DNA of 7,924 nucleotides from JBDROU01 sp043809745 [NCBI: bacterium]. Its GTDB lineage: Bacteria > Elusimicrobiota > JBDRMW01. Below are positions 1-7,677 of the stretch, in pieces. The translations under genes were made by a program, and so were the position numbers. The stretch covers positions 1-7,924 of the forward strand of contig JBDROU010000034.1 of assembly GCA_043809745.1 (NCBI GenBank), written 5' to 3'. Each line of letters starts with the position of its first letter. Position 1 is the first letter of the stretch. The notes below the pieces were generated by a model, which saw only the letters and a program-made list of their open reading frames with translations, was not told the origin of the DNA and did no database searches.

Positions 1-527
1 CTTTTTTGCTCAATGATTTTTGTTATCGTCTTAGTCCCTGCCATATTATAGTCTGCTCCTTTCAAAAACCAACACCCAGCATGGTCTACGGGCTGCCCTT
101 TTGCTGCATCATAGTGATTTTCTTTCTTCGGTCTACCCCGCAGATTGTTTAATTTTAATCTCTGAAGTATACTCTGTATCCACCGTCTTGTTACTGTTTC
201 TCCTGACCGGGTTTTTATCCTTTCCTTTATCTCTTCCCCTGTGATATCCGGATTATCCTCTTTTTCTCTCTTTATATAATTTATCATCTCATCTTTTACT
301 TTATAGCCACCCTCCCTGCCTCTACTATCTATTAATCCTAAAAATCCTTTCTTTTGATATTTCTTTTTTATTCTGCTCCAGGTTTCGGCACAATATGATA
401 ATTCTTTGCCTACACTTTTCAGGACTTCTTTCAGTTTTTCTCCCTGTAAAAGCCGTAGAACTATTTTTTGTTTCTCTCCAGCCTTTTTTACTTGCTCCTT
501 TTGTGTATCAGTAAAACCTTTTTCCAT
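1..527 (-). CDS. Transposase-like protein, N-terminal part (runs off left edge)
   Basis: The minus strand is open from an ATG at 527 to the window edge, giving 175 codons of an unfinished protein. Residues 20-60 (KIVLRLLQGEKLKEV, then AETWSRIKKKY) look like a helix-turn-helix of the kind at the head of IS630-like and related transposases. LIDSRGREGGYKV (65-77) is the usual linker, and residues 78-125 (DNPDITGEEI, then TVTRRWIQSIL) look like a second winged-helix DNA-binding domain. A basic GRPKKE stretch follows (131-136). The last visible part, VDHAGCWFLKGADY (147-160), would lead into the catalytic domain, which lies outside the window, so no DDE residue can be checked and the family is not certain. 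The start was chosen because the frame opens there and a consensus promoter sits just upstream. There is no Shine-Dalgarno. Confidence 0.6.
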   Translation of the reverse strand, partial: MEKGFTDTQKEQVKKAGEKQKIVLRLLQGEKLKEVLKSVGKELSYCAETWSRIKKKYQKKGFLGLIDSRGREGGYKVKDEMINYIKREKEDNPDITGEEIKERIKTRSGETVTRRWIQSILQRLKLNNLRGRPKKENHYDAAKGQPVDHAGCWFLKGADYNMAGTKTITKIIEQK

Positions 528-536
528 TGTGTAATA

Positions 537-564
537 ATTATACACAACAGAATATTTCTGTCAA
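537..564 (-). promoter_or_regulatory. Consensus sigma70-type promoter of the left transposase
   Basis: On the minus strand a perfect TTGACA (559-564) is followed after 16 bases by a perfect TATAAT (537-542). Transcription would be expected to start about 530-531, only a few bases before the ATG at 527. A 6-bp inverted repeat, TGTGTA...TACACA (528-546), overlaps the -10 box and the bases next to the start codon and could be an operator. The start site is inferred from consensus spacing. Confidence 0.65.
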
Positions 565-743: not shown

Positions 744-2198
744 TCAAGACACACCCACATTTCGTTTTGAATAATATTTTTGTTTTGGGCTGTTTGGCTT
801 ATTTGGTATTGTTGGCGAAAGCAATCCTTTTTCAATTAAAGGATTCAATATCCTTTTTCTAAAGTAATCTCTATTTTGAATTTCAATAAAATTTTGAATT
901 TCTTCTCTGGTCCGCGGTTTGTTACAGAAAATTAATATTTTTTTTATACGTTCATCTTGCATGGTGGCTTGCGGAGGAACTTGCATGGTGGCTTGCAAAG
1001 GAACTTGCATGGTGGCTTGCGGAGGAACTTGCTCGGCTAAAGGAATAATCATTTTAAAAATATCCCCTTCAATCAATTGAGGATTTGCTCCGGAATAATC
1101 TTTGCTATACTTAAAAAGGTTTTTAACACCTGAGCCGAGTTCATCCGCACGTCCTATTTCCTTAAAAAAATGTGCTATTACCGGATTCTTTGGAAAAGGA
1201 GAAAAATTAGCCGGGTCTATCAACCCGTGTCCATGCGGTTTATTGCTGTTTTCCGTATATACCCTGTTTTTTTCAATAATAAATTTGGCAGGGAAAGGAT
1301 TTAAGTATTCTCTGTGAATAAGAATATTTCCTGCAACTTCTCTAAATATATGGTCTCTTAGATTTATACGCTGACCATTTTCTAAATAAAACTTATCCGA
1401 CAAGTGTTTTGCCGTAAAAGCCATTATTCTGTCATAACTTTCAATAAGATTGGTCCGTATATCATCCCGATCGTCATATCTGTCTAAATTCTCTATTCGT
1501 AATATTGCGTCTGTACGGAAATGCGGCAGAATTGATAAAATTACTGCATCTTTACCAAGTAGAAGAACAGAAGCCAGCGTAAAACCTTTTTCCCCATTCT
1601 GATAGTCCTTCAAATATAGTTGCGCGCTTTTCAATAGTTCGAAATCGTTCATTTCTATCCAGGGATGATCCGGCTTTTGATTTCCAGCCAACTTTCTGGC
1701 TCTAGCAATCAGGTCCTTTCTTAAATCATTTATAGTTACAAAAGGATAAACTTTATTTTCGGAATAAGTAGTTTGTTTTCGTAAATAGAGTGCTGTAACA
1801 AGATTGGAATTGTCAGTAATATCTAAGTCACCATCTTCGTTGCGGTCATATATTTTCCCAACGCACTTATGAACCTGCGAGCTTTCAGGTACATAGATAT
1901 ATAAAATAGTTTTCCCGTTAATCTCTATTTCTTCTATGGTTAGATAAAATGCAGGTTTGATTTTTTGTGAATTATTAACAGTCGTTATAAAATCTTTTTT
2001 TATTTGTATTATATAATTTTTATCTATTCCGGTTATTTCCCCATTATCATTGACACCAAGAAAAAGTTCTCCGCCAGATCTATTTAAAAATGAGCAAATA
2101 GTTTCAAAGACATCTTTACTGAGACTGCTTTTGCACTCCTTGAATTCTACCGAGATTCCTTCACCTTGTTTTATAACTCGACTTTTGCAGTGTCCCAA
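744..2198 (-). CDS. AlbA_2/Schlafen-like, RecG-like ATP-binding protein, start altered by insertion
   Basis: This 484-residue protein belongs to the COG2865 type: putative transcriptional regulators or DNA/RNA-binding ATPases, often encoded in accessory and defence regions. Residues 12-140 are the AlbA_2 domain (GEGISVEFKE at 12-21; FLNRSGGELFLGVNDNGEITGI). Residues 280-388 resemble the RecG-like/HATPase_c_4 segment (REVAGNILIHREY, FPKNPVIAHFF, IGRADELGSGV). Residues 391-414 are three copies of VPPQATMQ, the second with L in place of the second P. Residues 418-475 look like a C-terminal winged helix (RTREEIQNF, LNPLIEKGLL). The start is a TTG at 2196-2198 with no good Shine-Dalgarno, lying inside the mobile element. 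The first residues, up to about VIK, come from the element's terminal repeat, so the native N-terminus is lost. The AlbA_2 core is intact, so a product could still work if made. Its biological role cannot be told from sequence. Confidence 0.85.
   Translation of the reverse strand: MGHCKSRVIKQGEGISVEFKECKSSLSKDVFETICSFLNRSGGELFLGVNDNGEITGIDKNYIIQIKKDFITTVNNSQKIKPAFYLTIEEIEINGKTILYIYVPESSQVHKCVGKIYDRNEDGDLDITDNSNLVTALYLRKQTTYSENKVYPFVTINDLRKDLIARARKLAGNQKPDHPWIEMNDFELLKSAQLYLKDYQNGEKGFTLASVLLLGKDAVILSILPHFRTDAILRIENLDRYDDRDDIRTNLIESYDRIMAFTAKHLSDKFYLENGQRINLRDHIFREVAGNILIHREYLNPFPAKFIIEKNRVYTENSNKPHGHGLIDPANFSPFPKNPVIAHFFKEIGRADELGSGVKNLFKYSKDYSGANPQLIEGDIFKMIIPLAEQVPPQATMQVPLQATMQVPPQATMQDERIKKILIFCNKPRTREEIQNFIEIQNRDYFRKRILNPLIEKGLLSPTIPNKPNSPKQKYYSKRNVGVS
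957..1032 (-). repeat. Three 24-bp in-frame tandem repeats in the AlbA_2 gene
   Basis: The units are 957-980, 981-1004 and 1005-1028, followed by 4 bases of a fourth. The first and third are identical and the middle one differs at two positions (aa for gg). Each unit codes for eight residues, VPPQATMQ or VPLQATMQ. Copy-number change would lengthen or shorten a Pro/Gln linker without shifting the frame. Confidence 0.95.
2171..2191 (+). repeat. Left terminal inverted repeat of the element
   Basis: The minus strand here reads ACTGCAAAAGTCGAG then TTATAA. It matches the plus strand at 4425-4445 in 20 of 21 positions. It is read through by the AlbA_2 frame, giving that protein its HCKSRVIK residues. 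Confidence 0.75.
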
Positions 2199-2219
2199 AT
2201 AACCTGAAAATTGGTTATT
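2198..2219. repeat. Small perfect hairpin just inside the left terminal repeat
   Basis: AATAACC (2198-2204) pairs with GGTTATT (2213-2219) across an 8-base loop. On the minus strand the hairpin ends on the TTG start of the AlbA_2 frame, so it would cover the place where a ribosome binding site should be. Confidence 0.5.
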
Positions 2220-2315
2220 AGCTGTTGGATTTATCTATTTTGAGGGGAAGTGGCAAGACAGCAGGCAGAGTTCTCCCGTCTCACTTAGCCATAGTGTATC
2301 GGCCAAGCTTCTGCA

Positions 2316-2332
2316 CTGCTTCGCGAAGGCAG
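2316..2332. repeat. Small GC-rich hairpin behind the transposase stop
   Basis: CTGC...GCAG arms enclose the palindrome CTTCGCGAAG, 7 bases past the transposase stop codon. No T-run follows on the minus strand, so it is not a standard intrinsic terminator. It may be a subterminal structure of the element or slow read-through transcription. Confidence 0.35.
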
Positions 2333-2338
2333 ATGAAC

Positions 2339-3748
2339 CTATTGGGAAAATGCAGTAAGTAAAGGTGCCATTACTTTACTGAGTGGTTCTCCTTGGGAAA
2401 TGCCGGTAGCGATAAATGTGGCTAAGGCCCATAAAGCCTGAGCCTGTGTGTTCCGACGCCAATATCCCAGCGAGCCAGCAAGAGTATCCTTGACAGTGCG
2501 TTGGAGTTTGTGAATAAGGGCTTTATCGTGTTGGGCTACTTTCAGCAGGCTATAGGTGACGGCGACCAGTGCGATATGTTTATTTATCGCCCCAAAGTCA
2601 CGTACCTGGTACTGATCGAGCCCTTCATCTTTGCCCTCTTCGTGAAAGACTTCAACGGGCCAGCGGTGGCGACGGATGCGTGTAATTCCTACTGAACTCC
2701 AGTTCAGTTTGTTGGAGATGAAAAAGATTCCGGCATCCGAAAGGTCTGCTTCACGATGGTTGATTACCAGTCGTTGCTTTCCAAAGTTTTTGATACGATG
2801 AGTTCTACAGTAACTATAGTAGGTTTCCTTTTCTCCTTTGTAGGGAATCGTGATTTTTTGAAAGACCGGCGTGCCTCTTTTCTCGACAGCTTCTTGATGT
2901 TCTCGTTTAAGGTGGAGAGCAAATTCATCTAAGCGTTTTTCTCCTGAGGCAAGGATAATTTTGTCAGCACCAGCTAAGGTCCCCACATATGGAACTTTTA
3001 AGGTCTTATGCAAAAATGTGCAAAGGGAGGGTTGTGTATACCAGTTGTCGAAAGTGATAGCCAGATTAAGATATTTATGTTCGGCATAGACCTGGGTAAG
3101 TAGGTCTTGAGCGAGGAGTAACTTGGATTGATATAGTTTTTGTATTTCAGGGTTTTTCTGATAACGTGCCCACAGATGAACCAGGTAACTGCGCCACTTT
3201 TTGGGAGCGTTCTCTTTTAGGAGGTATTTATCTGCACGGATAGGTATGCCCGCGGCCTTAAAACCTGCCTCCAGTACCTCTGTCTCCGCAGGCTCCCATA
3301 AGCGGAAATTTACCGGGAAGTCGGTCTCGTCGTCACTGTAGTGAAGATTGACCAGGTTGTGGGCATATACATAGTGCTTCTTGGTGTGGTCCCACAAGTA
3401 GGCAATCTTATCGAAATCCTCACCCACATGTTCCAACAACGTGTCATCCAGACTCAACACTCCCATTGGTTTCAGCCGTGTAGCAGGCTGACTGCTGAGC
3501 ATGTTCAGGCGGGCACGGTTTAACTTCTCCGGAGAGAACGGACTTTCCGTCAGAAATCGATTCAAACTGCTCTGATTACGCACATCAATCACGAAGAGCT
3601 GGTTAATCCCTTCCACCGTTTTGTTTTCTGAGACGAGCAATCCACTGATATAACGTTTAAACTGCTCAAAAGCTTCTGGAGAAAAGACAGACACAAAAAA
3701 CGATTCATAGTGCCGCACAATCTCTGGAATCTCAACTAAAGGAATCAT
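2339..3748 (-). CDS. IS701-like DDE transposase
   Basis: This complete 469-residue transposase catalyses cut-and-paste movement of its element. The N-terminal part (FEQFKRYISGLL, then KTVEGINQLF, QSSLNRFLTESPF) is the usual head of IS701-type (DDE_5) enzymes. The catalytic acids fit an RNase H fold: D101 or D102 in VLSLDDTLL, D234 in ITFDNWYT, and E366 in HRWPVEVFHEEGKDEGLDQYQ. All are present, and the frame has no break. The ATG at 3746-3748 has a full Shine-Dalgarno, GGAGGTGAT, and overlaps the stop of the preceding small ORF as ATGA. It looks much richer in G+C than the neighbouring DUF6788 gene, which suggests a separate origin. The family call rests on motif layout and length. Confidence 0.88.
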   Translation of the reverse strand: MIPLVEIPEIVRHYESFFVSVFSPEAFEQFKRYISGLLVSENKTVEGINQLFVIDVRNQSSLNRFLTESPFSPEKLNRARLNMLSSQPATRLKPMGVLSLDDTLLEHVGEDFDKIAYLWDHTKKHYVYAHNLVNLHYSDDETDFPVNFRLWEPAETEVLEAGFKAAGIPIRADKYLLKENAPKKWRSYLVHLWARYQKNPEIQKLYQSKLLLAQDLLTQVYAEHKYLNLAITFDNWYTQPSLCTFLHKTLKVPYVGTLAGADKIILASGEKRLDEFALHLKREHQEAVEKRGTPVFQKITIPYKGEKETYYSYCRTHRIKNFGKQRLVINHREADLSDAGIFFISNKLNWSSVGITRIRRHRWPVEVFHEEGKDEGLDQYQVRDFGAINKHIALVAVTYSLLKVAQHDKALIHKLQRTVKDTLAGSLGYWRRNTQAQALWALATFIATGISQGEPLSKVMAPLLTAFSQ

Positions 3749-3825
3749 AATATCACCTCCATATGGTTACTGGATATTTCCTTTCCTCTCTTTTCCTTCC
3801 GACCTTTATCTTTTGCTTTTGACAT
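3745..3825 (-). CDS. 26-residue basic leader ORF coupled to the transposase
   Basis: This short ORF starts at an ATG (3823-3825) with AGAGGG (3830-3835) four bases upstream. It codes for a very basic peptide, MSKAKDKGRKEKRGKEI at its start. Its TGA stop (3745-3747) shares bases with the transposase ATG (ATGA), the classic layout for translational coupling, and the transposase Shine-Dalgarno lies inside the ORF. It is probably a translated leader that ties transposase output to upstream translation, or a small DNA/RNA-binding accessory peptide. Expression is inferred from the ribosome binding site and overlap. Confidence 0.55.
   Translation of the reverse strand: MSKAKDKGRKEKRGKEISSNHMEVIL
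3752..3760 (-). promoter_or_regulatory. Strong ribosome binding site of the transposase
   Basis: GGAGGTGAT matches the anti-Shine-Dalgarno closely, with GGAGG seven bases before the ATG. It fixes the start at 3748 and lies inside the small ORF's last codons. Confidence 0.75.
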
Positions 3826-3867
3826 TTTTCCCTCTGATAATACAAAGTTGTTTGGTACAGCCAGATT

Positions 3868-4185
3868 TTATATCTGCTTTTTTATTATCTCTATGTTTAT
3901 TTCGGACAATTCGTTTATGCATTTAATCATTTCCTTGTAATTCCCCACAGCATTTTTTATCTGCTTTTCTATAGCTTTTGGTATGTATAACATTCTGGGT
4001 TTGCCATTTGCAAATTGGGACAGGTAGAGAGATACATGTTTTTCACCCCGGACACATTTGCAATTGGGATGTCCGCATACCCTGCTCATTATTACAAGAG
4101 AGCCTTTAATAATTTCATTGGTGCTGGAGACCTTTCTGAACAATTCTTTTTTTGCTCGTTCTAATACTTTTAATGTTTTTGGCAT
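3868..4185 (-). CDS. DUF6788 family zinc-knuckle protein
   Basis: This 105-residue protein has the layout of DUF6788: a charged N-terminal helix (LKVLERAKKELFRKV), the block GSLVIMSRVCGHPNCKCVRG, and a C-terminal helix (YKEMIKCINELSEINIEII). The three cysteines C37, C42 and C44, perhaps with H39 or H50 (GEKH), look like a small metal site for nucleic acid binding. Families of this type commonly sit next to transposase genes, and here it is first in the element's transcription unit. The ATG at 4185 follows AGAGAGG (4190-4196), and a consensus promoter lies 38 bases further up. Its exact role in transposition is unknown to me. The gene looks complete at both ends. Confidence 0.75.
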   Translation of the reverse strand: MPKTLKVLERAKKELFRKVSSTNEIIKGSLVIMSRVCGHPNCKCVRGEKHVSLYLSQFANGKPRMLYIPKAIEKQIKNAVGNYKEMIKCINELSEINIEIIKKQI

Positions 4186-4222
4186 ATTACCTCTCTTATT
4201 ATGATATTATTTATACTATCAG

Positions 4223-4250
4223 ATTATACAAAAGAATTTTTTATTGTCAA
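4223..4250 (-). promoter_or_regulatory. Consensus sigma70-type promoter of the DUF6788 unit
   Basis: On the minus strand TTGACA (4245-4250) and TATAAT (4223-4228) are separated by 16 bases. Both boxes are perfect. The expected start near 4216 leaves a leader of about 30 bases with a Shine-Dalgarno at 4190-4196. The 11-base string ATAATTTGACA is identical to that at the left transposase promoter (559-569). Confidence 0.7.
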
Positions 4251-4317
4251 ATTATGGCATAACTTTTTTTACTTTATTTTTTTCAGATTCAATGTTTTTC
4301 GGGTTTAAGGAGTGAGA

Positions 4318-4449
4318 GTGGAAGTATTAATCTCTTACAACTACAAAAGTCTTACCTTTTTTTGTGGCAGGTGGGTGGTGGATATGGTTTTTCCTTTTGC
4401 AAGGCTACTTATAAATCAATACTTACTGCAAAAGTCGAGGTATAACTAA
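4318..4449 (+). other. Possible 43-codon ORF across the right terminal repeat (doubtful)
   Basis: A GTG at 4318 follows AAGGAGTGAGA and opens a frame ending at TAA 4447-4449, just outside the element. The peptide (MEVLISYNYKSL at its start) resembles nothing I know. It is opposite in direction to the element's genes. Otherwise 4186-4424 holds only the promoter and AT-rich sequence. Confidence 0.15.
4425..4445 (+). repeat. Right terminal inverted repeat of the element
   Basis: ACTGCAAAAGTCGAG followed by GTATAA matches the complement of 2171-2191 with one mismatch (g4440). The right-hand truncated frame is open through it, giving YCKSRGIT. Confidence 0.75.
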
Positions 4450-5419
4450 TAAATATCTCTCTAATCTGATTATAGTAGCCAAAAAATTCTGTGATGATTA
4501 TGATATATATTATGCCAGCGGAGTTTATGAATCCAGGTTCTTCAATTCGTTATATTGCAACCATATTTGTCTGATCATATTCAAGAAAGGTGATACTGAT
4601 AAAGGATGGATAATTGATCCTTCCCTCAAGGAATTTATAAGATGTTTTAAGGAACCTAATCGCTATAAGAATATTCTTAATGATAATGAAGTATTTACAA
4701 CTAATTCTAAGCATTTATATCTTATCTCAGCCGAGATTGGATCCGCTATCAGGAAAGAACTTGAAGTTAAAAAAAATTCTTTTACTCATTTCAGCTCAGC
4801 TTTTGATTCATATCTCCCATTATTCATTTATGAGAATAAGTCACTGGTGCTTGTGAAATTTCGAAGAAAAGAAGATAAGGTGGAAGCCGAGTATTATGAA
4901 CAAAAAGAAAATAGCGATTTTTCTCAAAAAAAACTTATATCTAACTATACCCTGAGATACCAGGAGCTATATAATTACAATAATATTTTTCCCATTATTG
5001 AGTCTTTGCTTAAAAAAGTTTCAATAATAGACAGTTCCGAGTTAGAGCAGCATCAAAGATTAATTTCAACAGAACTGGAAGAAGATTACATGCTGCTCCT
5101 TTATTATATAGAACTTGCTATTGTTCAGACTTTTCAAAGAAATACCGATTTGACAGACGGGATAGTCAGTAATGTATTAAATGAATTAATCTGCAATGAA
5201 GAAAACAGACTCTACCGTCTGGAATATTTGAAACCAAAAGCGGAAAAAATACACCAGGAATTATTAAATCAAATAAATTCGTTCAACCTGAAATTTAAAT
5301 ACCCGAAAAGAATATTAACTAATGCCTTAAAACAGGTTATGAATTCAGTTGAAACCTTTATTAAACGAGATGTATCAAACGATGCCTACTTAAAATTTAT
5401 TGTTGGTTATTTCAAATAG
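4448..5419 (+). CDS. Hypothetical protein, 5' end truncated at the element
   Basis: The frame is open without a stop from just after TAA 4412-4414 through the element's terminal repeat to TAG 5417-5419. Counted from the first codon outside the repeat it gives 323 residues. There is no ATG, GTG or TTG in frame before the GTG at 4847. That GTG has no ribosome binding site, and the 130 codons before it read like protein, so the gene has most likely lost its start. In the first part, NHICLIIF (H39) followed by KGWIIDPSL (D57) resembles the His-Asp half of a transglutaminase or papain-like core, whose Cys would then lie in the missing end. The rest is mainly helical and charged, with EEDYMLLLYYIELAIVQTF the clearest helix. 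I do not recognise the family. It is probably a remnant, though a downstream start is not excluded. Confidence 0.6.
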   Translation, partial: NKYLSNLIIVAKKFCDDYDIYYASGVYESRFFNSLYCNHICLIIFKKGDTDKGWIIDPSLKEFIRCFKEPNRYKNILNDNEVFTTNSKHLYLISAEIGSAIRKELEVKKNSFTHFSSAFDSYLPLFIYENKSLVLVKFRRKEDKVEAEYYEQKENSDFSQKKLISNYTLRYQELYNYNNIFPIIESLLKKVSIIDSSELEQHQRLISTELEEDYMLLLYYIELAIVQTFQRNTDLTDGIVSNVLNELICNEENRLYRLEYLKPKAEKIHQELLNQINSFNLKFKYPKRILTNALKQVMNSVETFIKRDVSNDAYLKFIVGYFK

Positions 5420-5567: not shown

Positions 5568-5606
5568 CTTGAATAAATTATTAGTAAATATTCAGTAAAT
5601 ACCGTT

Positions 5607-5681
5607 GTCATTCCGAGTGAAACGAAGGAATCTTATTGAGATTGCCACGGACTTCGTCCTCGCAATGATGCCAGAGATGAC
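5607..5681. repeat. GTCATTCC paired-hairpin repeat, diverged copy
   Basis: GTCATTCC at 5607 pairs back with GGAAT (5627-5631). A second hairpin follows: ATTGC (5641-5645) with GCAAT (5662-5666), with GGAC/GTCC inside. The element closes with ATGAC (5677-5681). The plan matches the copies at 6823 and 7564, with a different second stem. Confidence 0.65.
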
Positions 5682-6788: not shown

Positions 6789-6822
6789 GTAGAGGAGTTG
6801 TAAGTATTCAGTCATTCCCCGT

Positions 6823-6884
6823 GTCATTCCCGTGTAAACGGGAATCTATTATAAATATAGATTCCGTGTCAAGCACGGAATGAC
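6823..6884. repeat. GTCATTCC paired-hairpin repeat
   Basis: Two hairpins stand in tandem: ATTCCCGT/ACGGGAAT (6826-6833 with 6838-6845) and ATTCCGTG/CACGGAAT (6861-6868 with 6874-6881). The linker 6846-6860 begins CTAT and ends ATAG. GTC and GAC close the ends, so the whole can also fold as one long palindrome. A partial GTCATTCCCC lies just before it (6811-6820). Confidence 0.85.
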
Positions 6885-7419: not shown

Positions 7420-7563
7420 TTCAAAATAAAACAATCAAACAACTTAATCCAGCGGACTTTTTCCACAGCTAAACCGGCATAAAAAGCTGCTGATTTCAGA
7501 TGTTATCTGGATAAACAAAGATTAGTAAAAGGTCGGTGAACGGTGTCATTCTTCGTTCAGTAT

Positions 7564-7615
7564 GTCATTCCTGCGAAAGCAGGAATCTATAGATTCCCAT
7601 TTTCATGGGAATGAC
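7564..7615. repeat. GTCATTCC paired-hairpin repeat
   Basis: ATTCCTGC/GCAGGAAT (7567-7574 with 7579-7586) closes a GAAA loop. ATTCCCAT/ATGGGAAT (7593-7600 with 7605-7612) closes TTTC. The linker CTATAG (7587-7592) is itself a palindrome, and GTC and GAC close the ends. It has the same plan as the copy at 6823. A partial GTCATTC lies upstream, at about 7543. Confidence 0.85.
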
Positions 7616-7677
7616 TACACCATTGACTGAACTTTTACAAAGATTAAGCGGTTTGATACATGTTATGAGGTATTAAC

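What the first reader, a model, noticed from the sequence alone, without database searches (positions are those of the whole stretch)
2171..4445. Compact element pairing DUF6788, a coupled micro-ORF and an IS701-like transposase
Terminal repeats matching at 20/21 positions enclose three minus-strand genes behind one consensus promoter. If this is one element, it is an IS701 relative with two accessory proteins, and DUF6788 would be a transposition cofactor. If it is nested, the outer element is a DUF6788-only derivative with intact ends but no transposase of its own. The composition contrast and the tight 42-bp gap between DUF6788 and the small ORF point in opposite directions.
Basis: partly seen in the sequence, partly recalled or inferred. 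Interest (0 to 1): 0.6.

Follow-up and report, generated by a model that had tools for sequence, protein, structure and literature searches.

The report
IS701-like transposon carrying a DUF6788 gene
A jumping gene of a known family carries, between its own two ends, an extra small gene for a probable metal-binding protein that also turns up in an unrelated kind of jumping gene, so it may be a helper for DNA movement.

Summary
A 20/21-bp inverted repeat (2171-2191 / 4425-4445; 0 of 300 shuffles) encloses three minus-strand ORFs behind a 12/12 sigma-70-type promoter. The evidence favours one element over nesting. Of 20 distant IS701-branch loci tested in plasmid records, 14 (from 6 plasmids, three end groups) have C(T/A)C(G/A)(G/A)CT ends. 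Scored with gaps against six upstream ends of such relatives, the window's repeat starts rank 1st and 3rd of 15,806 positions; an ungapped 12-base matrix failed. No significant internal pair was found. The repeats are best read as this transposase's own ends: element 2177-4439 (2263 bp), flanked by TTATAA/GTATAA; 10 of 14 relatives have exact 6-8 bp duplications. None of the 14 (1.24-1.5 kb) has DUF6788 inside its ends. DUF6788 recurs in an unrelated serine-recombinase unit lying in group II intron RT genes (4 of 4 loci examined), which suggests but does not prove a role in DNA mobility; some other copies have no annotated transposase nearby. No second copy was found; metagenomes could not be searched. 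Filed as a new variant.

The parts
2177..4439 (.). whole element, 2263 bp
   Evidence: ends set by comparison with relatives
2177..2191 (+). terminal inverted repeat, downstream (transposase 3') end, CTCGACTTTTGCAGT
   Evidence: rank 3 of 15806 positions against relatives' upstream ends, rank 23 against their downstream ends
4425..4439 (-). terminal inverted repeat, upstream end, CTCGACTTTTGCAGT followed by AAGTA as in several relatives
   Evidence: rank 1 of 15806 against relatives' upstream ends, rank 3 against their downstream ends
2171..2176 (.). left copy of putative target duplication TTATAA
   Evidence: 5/6 with GTATAA; chance of such a match 0.007 at that one length (five lengths were looked at)
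4440..4445 (.). right copy of putative target duplication GTATAA
2339..3748 (-). IS701-branch DDE transposase, 469 aa
3745..3825 (-). 26-aa basic micro-ORF, ATGA-overlapping the transposase start
   Evidence: read by eye; no family match; coding status not shown
3868..4185 (-). DUF6788 gene, 105 aa, CGxxxCxC...H motif
4223..4250 (-). sigma-70-type promoter TTGACA-16-TATAAT, 12/12
2192..2338 (-). 147-bp non-coding tail between transposase stop and end repeat; RNA fold not exceptional (z -1.05 for 2192-2341)
4340..4354 (-). weak internal copy of the end (TAAGACTTTTGTAGT, 11/15), possible second binding site
   Evidence: not shown to be more than chance

Best explanation
One autonomous insertion sequence of the IS701 branch, 2263 bp, that carries an extra gene (DUF6788) with its own promoter between its upstream end and its transposase. 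SHOWN: ends, order of genes, similarity of the ends to IS701-branch ends, near-match target duplication. INFERRED: one transcript from the 12/12 promoter runs through DUF6788, the micro-ORF and the transposase; the micro-ORF's stop overlaps the transposase start (ATGA), so transposase translation would be coupled and kept low; the transposase binds the CTCGACTTTTGCAGT ends and moves the whole unit by DDE chemistry, duplicating about 6 bp of an AT-rich target. DUF6788 is a probable zinc-binding small protein. My preferred but weak reading (about 0.4) is that it is a DNA-binding regulator or helper of transposition, not neutral cargo.
For: Outer repeats 20/21, 0 of 300 shuffles. Relatives' ends: 14 of the 20 loci tested have C(T/A)C(G/A)(G/A)CT ends, in three groups that are about 25% identical to each other in protein (haloarchaeal 1.24-1.29 kb, haloarchaeal 1.5 kb, Acaryochloris 1.5 kb). 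Ranking of all window positions by six upstream ends of these relatives puts 4439(-) first and 2177(+) third of 15,806. The upstream end also shares the inner AAGTA of several relatives. Exact 6-8 bp duplications in 10 of 14 relatives; 5/6 at 6 bp in the window. No internal end pair: best p=0.13. D101/D102, D234, R362, E366 and K373 conserved in 4 of 4 aligned transposases. DUF6788 also lies between a DUF5372/Y4bD-type gene and a serine recombinase in 4 of 4 such plasmid loci examined, each unit flanked by reverse-transcriptase pieces.
Against: No second copy of the three-gene element in anything searched. G+C steps from 46% to about 35% at the transposase start. A 12-position ungapped weight matrix, tried first, failed to single out the ends (at least 15 better positions); the gapped score was chosen after that, and the match needs one inserted T. 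The downstream end ranks only 23rd against relatives' downstream ends. The 14 relatives come from 6 plasmids, 8 of them from one, so they are not independent. The IS701 score is only just over cut-off (151 vs 150) and identity to plasmid relatives is 22-33%, more only in short pieces. None of the 14 relatives has DUF6788 inside its ends, and in Alicyclobacillus (3 plasmids) and Chlorohelix no transposase is annotated near it, so a helper role is far from shown.
Confidence: 0.8

Rival explanations
1. Same single element, but DUF6788 is neutral or host-useful cargo captured from an AT-rich genome, as passenger genes are in IS231-type elements, and plays no part in transposition. (A variant of the best explanation; it shares its anatomy.)
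For: AT-rich like the flanks; its own 12/12 promoter; relatives move without it (0 of 14 have it inside their ends); DUF6788 occurs with no annotated transposase or recombinase nearby.
Against: Recurrence of DUF6788 in a serine-recombinase unit and beside an IS701_3-type transposase in Polaromonas points to a mobility link.
Confidence: 0.42
2. Nested: an IS701-like IS inserted into an older DUF6788-only element (mobile insertion cassette).
For: G+C contrast; a weak internal pair TGTCCCAAATAAC (2191-2203) / TGTACCAAACAAC (3847-3859), 11/13, p 0.13-0.21.
Against: Outer ends resemble those of the transposase's own branch; the internal pair is not significant, does not resemble relatives' ends and shows no flanking duplication by eye; only 42 bp separate DUF6788 from the micro-ORF.
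Confidence: 0.1
3. The DUF6788 segment is itself a later insertion (of another element or by recombination) into an IS701-like IS just inside its upstream end.
For: Sharp composition step at the transposase start; in three haloarchaeal relatives the transposase starts only about 53 bp inside the end.
Against: No repeats bounding the DUF6788 segment were seen among those listed in the window scan (20 of 25 direct families, 25 of 34 inverted pairs shown).
Confidence: 0.2
4. The repeats are chance and the genes unrelated neighbours.
For: No other copy found.
Against: 0 of 300 shuffles; similarity to relatives' ends.
Confidence: 0.02

Closest known systems
IS701-like elements of haloarchaea (ISHti12, ISHala4, Halococcus and Halocatena copies) and Acaryochloris (plasmid records)
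   Same: IS701-type DDE transposase; ends C(T/A)C(G/A)(G/A)CT...; 6-8 bp target duplications in 10 of 14
   Different: 1.24-1.5 kb; no DUF6788 inside the ends; mostly 22-33% protein identity; the three aligned haloarchaeal transposases keep the Y of YREK
Family IS701 as defined in PMC2266710 (passages read)
   Same: DDE transposase; tyrosine of YREK absent as in 23 of 27 members; 6 of 7 specified end positions of ---YACT-Y--YR (counted by eye)
   Different: size 1400-1550 bp and 4-bp duplications in the family; here 2263 bp and a 5/6 match at 6 bp (or TATA, 4 bp, if the end is set one base out)
IS231 subgroup of IS4 with passenger genes (PMC2266710, passages read)
   Same: extra gene between the left end and the transposase
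   Different: other family, other ends, 10-12 bp duplications; the paper says this modular build had not been seen in other IS families or IS4 subgroups (2008)
DUF5372-DUF6788-serine recombinase unit of Burkholderiales and Microvirga plasmids
   Same: DUF6788 gene just upstream of the recombinase, in a mobile unit
   Different: serine recombinase instead of DDE transposase; lies in group II intron reverse-transcriptase genes

Membership tests
IS701 family | transposase matches the curated IS701 model | tested here: met
   NF033540 151 bits, cut-off 150; marginal
IS701 family | DDE triad with R-E-K but usually no Y of YREK | tested here: met
   D101/D102, D234, R362, E366, K373 conserved in 4 of 4; R at the Y position in the window, Y in the three relatives; family statement from PMC2266710
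IS701 family | ends ---YACT-Y--YR | tested here: inconclusive
   CTCGACTTTTGCA fits 6 of 7 specified positions (G for the first Y), by eye; consensus from PMC2266710, which says it does not represent the whole family
IS701 family | 4-bp target duplication | tested here: inconclusive
   TTATAA/GTATAA 5/6 at 6 bp, or TATA at 4 bp with ends one base out; branch relatives have 6-8 bp in 10 of 14
IS701 family | single-ORF element of 1400-1550 bp | tested here: not met
   2263 bp with DUF6788 and a micro-ORF; a typical size, not a strict criterion, and the haloarchaeal relatives of 1.24-1.29 kb miss it too
IS with passenger gene (IS231-like architecture) | extra gene inside the ends, upstream of the transposase | tested here: met
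   DUF6788 3868-4185 inside 2177-4439
IS with passenger gene (IS231-like architecture) | extra gene moves with the element | not testable with these tools
   no second copy found
mobile insertion cassette (DUF6788-only, no transposase) | no transposase of its own between the ends | tested here: not met
   the ends resemble those of the internal transposase's branch
DUF6788 (PF20586) | profile match over the curated cut-off | tested here: met
   61.2 bits, cut-off 27.2

The most novel reading that the evidence does not exclude
DUF6788 is a small zinc-binding accessory protein of DNA mobility that has been taken up independently by chemically unrelated recombination systems (an IS701-branch DDE transposase here, a serine recombinase in Burkholderiales and Microvirga), where it acts on the DNA or on the recombinase, for example in end recognition, target choice or transposase control.
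Probability: 0.3. Interest if true: 0.65.

Novelty: new variant of a known kind. Interest (0 to 1): 0.4.

Why it matters
The IS701 elements summarised in PMC2266710 are 1400-1550 bp (passages read); an extra gene inside the ends would extend the passenger-gene build known from IS231 to another family. If DUF6788 helps mobility, a family of unknown function would gain a testable role, and its presence in both DDE and serine-recombinase units would point to a shared accessory step. If it is cargo, the find is a modest annotation gain.

Tried and rejected
Homologue scans that gave nothing: DUF6788 and transposase proteins in genome contigs and viral contigs, the transposase alignment in viral contigs, the element's DNA in plasmids, both proteins in phages. 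The contig scans find close relatives only. The 15-mer end in viral-contig hit 20 stretches; none encodes either protein by tblastn at E 0.01, and 3 of 20 have an opposite-strand match with up to 3 mismatches (2.4 expected from shuffles); in the one of these that I looked into (L018) the genes between are not transposase-like by eye: chance. Rfam: no match in the window. RNA fold of the tail: unremarkable. Structure prediction of DUF6788 from one sequence: mean pLDDT 50.4, not used. Solved structures: no hit at E up to 1 for the transposase, two insignificant for DUF6788.

Internal ends for a nested IS: best pair p 0.13-0.21. A first shuffle test with shared 15-mers was uninformative (66 of 200 shuffles), I think because it counted palindromes and AT-rich matches; the 21-mer test with spaced arms replaced it. 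An ungapped 12-position matrix from 15 relative ends did not rank the window's ends among its best 15; on the first 8 positions they rank 2nd and 3rd. The gapped score followed, with 6 upstream and 6 downstream ends that I picked to stand for the three groups.

Ends of L035, L038 and L040 could not be set. Of the 24 relative loci given, four had no transposase hit (L053, L059, L060, L061), two gave no significant repeat (L052, L062), four have ends of other types (L036, L051, L054, L058) and 14 have the CTC/CAC-type ends; of these 14, L048 and L049 are not significant on their own (p 0.115, 0.155) but carry nearly the motif of L047, and 8 come from one Halococcus plasmid. The 17 regions were picked by hand from the places listed. 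The weak P. mandelii hit (E=2) was dropped. Three further records with the recombinase-linked DUF6788 were not fetched. Polaromonas DUF6788 (L028) lies divergently beside an IS701_3-type transposase probably cut by an IS6 element; no repeat pair enclosing both was recognised.

Papers: DUF6788 0 hits, DUF5372 0, IS701 family + accessory + transposase + passenger gene 0, Y4bA + recombinase + transposon 0. Searches (15 of 75 listed; 10 of 14 listed) were seen as listings only, apart from passages of PMC2266710.

Full report
OBSERVATION. The repeat 2171-2191 / 4425-4445 is real, 20 of 21 positions, and 0 of 300 shuffled windows hold such a pair with arms 100-6000 bp apart. Inside lie a full-length DUF6788 gene, a 26-aa micro-ORF whose stop overlaps the transposase start as ATGA (read by eye), and a 469-aa transposase that only just passes the IS701 model (151 bits, cut-off 150). 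A 12/12 promoter (TTGACA-16-TATAAT) stands before DUF6788. G+C is 46% in the transposase, 34.6% in DUF6788, 29% upstream and 34-35% in the flanks.

ONE ELEMENT OR NESTED. The deciding question is whose ends the outer repeats are. tblastn of the transposase in 72,556 plasmid records gave 28 records at 22-33% identity. I took IS701-branch loci from these and 17 regions picked from whole-record profile searches, and searched for inverted repeats around each transposase. Of 24 loci, 20 had a transposase match; 14 of these have ends of one type in three groups: haloarchaeal elements of 1.24-1.29 kb (CTC(A/G)(G/A)CT(T/C)TG(A/C)ACGTT), haloarchaeal elements of 1.5 kb (CTCG(G/A)CTTGG(C/A)AA) and Acaryochloris (CACGACTTGGCAAAGTT). 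Four have other ends; two were unresolved (lengths). The groups are about 25% identical to each other in protein; no tree was built. The 14 come from 6 plasmids, 8 from one. The window's ends are CTCGACTTTTGCAGT.

When every 22-mer of the window (15,806 positions on both strands) is scored against six upstream ends of these relatives, with gaps allowed, the upstream repeat start 4439(-) ranks 1st and the downstream one 2177(+) 3rd; an internal site, 3029(-), is 2nd. Against six downstream ends they rank 3rd and 23rd. An ungapped 12-position matrix, tried before, did not single them out; in its first 8 positions alone they rank 2nd and 3rd. So the match is in the first 8 bases plus a GCA shifted by one base. 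In the best search for an internal pair, 2191-2203 / 3847-3859 match at 11 of 13 with p 0.13-0.21, and the pair does not look like relatives' ends. I conclude that the outer repeats are most likely the transposase's own ends and that the element is 2177-4439.

TARGET DUPLICATION. With ends set at the first C, 10 of 14 relatives have exact 6-8 bp duplications and 4 have none longer than 2 bp; the window has TTATAA/GTATAA, 5 of 6, chance 0.007 at that one length, five lengths having been looked at. With the end one base out it is TATA, 4 bp. PMC2266710 (passages read) gives 4 bp for IS701 and 5-6 bp AT-rich tracts for IS1634, so the branch sits uneasily in IS701 by this trait.

WHAT DUF6788 IS DOING THERE. 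DUF6788 was aligned for the window and six plasmid loci; G28, C37, G38, C42, C44 and H50 are invariant, a likely metal site (inference). In plasmids, three tblastn queries with different members found few records. In the four recombinase-linked loci that I examined (L001, L002, L030, L031; three further records were not fetched) a DUF5372 gene (Pfam in L002 and L030) or Y4bD/Y4pK gene (so annotated in L001 and L031), DUF6788 and a serine recombinase follow each other (the L030 recombinase was recognised from its ORF and its DNA match to L002). Between L002 and L001 or L031 the match stops at the ends of a block of about 2.95 kb. A C-terminal reverse-transcriptase part lies beside the block in 4 of 4, an N-terminal part on the other side in 3 of 4 by tblastn and in the fourth (L002) by translation (the query came from L030): it looks like a mobile unit that sits in group II intron reverse-transcriptase genes. 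In Polaromonas, DUF6788 lies beside a damaged IS701_3-type transposase. Against a mobility role: in Alicyclobacillus (3 plasmids, one with an integrase next door), Chlorohelix and Natrinema no transposase is annotated beside it (the plasmid tables leave out pseudogenes); a Halococcus copy lies about 3 kb outside an IS701-type element; and none of the 14 relatives has DUF6788 inside its ends.

MECHANISM. Most likely one transcript from the promoter at 4250-4223 covers DUF6788, the micro-ORF and the transposase; coupling through the micro-ORF would hold transposase low; the transposase then moves the whole 2263 bp. All of this is inferred from anatomy. Whether DUF6788 helps, regulates or merely rides along is open; I put a role in mobility at about 0.4 and cargo at about 0.42.

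FLANKS. The element stands between two genes that point away from it and both lack an obvious start: an AlbA_2/Schlafen-type protein (744-2198 minus, whose listed TTG start lies inside the element) and a right-hand ORF open to 5419 with no ATG, GTG or TTG in frame before 4847. The insertion may have cut into the 5' end of one or both.

NOVELTY. PMC2266710 (passages) says that extra DNA with passenger genes between the left end and the transposase was seen in IS231 and not in other families as of 2008. Searches for DUF6788 and for IS701 family with accessory and passenger gene found no paper; (three of four terms) found 75 papers, of which I saw 15 as titles and abstract starts. ISfinder itself could not be searched. 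I therefore claim a new variant with caution.

Noticed in passing
L001:3597-6547, L002:3597-6547, L031:3602-6556, L030:3587-6457: A DUF5372-DUF6788-serine recombinase unit lies in group II intron reverse-transcriptase genes in all four plasmid loci examined; in L030 and L002 the break follows an IPK...(RPLG/RNLG)-like motif. A mobile unit that seems to target another mobile element.
   Followed up: partly
window 744-2198 (-): Schlafen/AlbA_2 protein with Fic-like C-terminal domain; it holds three 24-bp-spaced tandem repeats (956-1032) and weak PADLOC hits to pAgo-type models.
   Followed up: no
window 4442-5419 (+): ORF open at its 5' side without a start codon before 4847; its N-terminus may have been lost at the element's insertion.
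   Followed up: partly
window 6798-6849, 7563-7640 and about 5584-5614: Small dispersed repeats (GTCATTCC...GGGAATCTAT...), MITE-like or palindromic intergenic repeats.
   Followed up: no
window 3-545 (-): N-terminal part of an IS630/IS481-like transposase running off the window edge (below cut-off), with a promoter-like stretch resembling that of the DUF6788 gene (537-569 vs 4223-4255, 76%).
   Followed up: no
14 IS701-branch loci: 10 of 14 loci of this branch show 6-8 bp target duplications, not the 4 bp given for family IS701; it may deserve its own group.
   Followed up: partly
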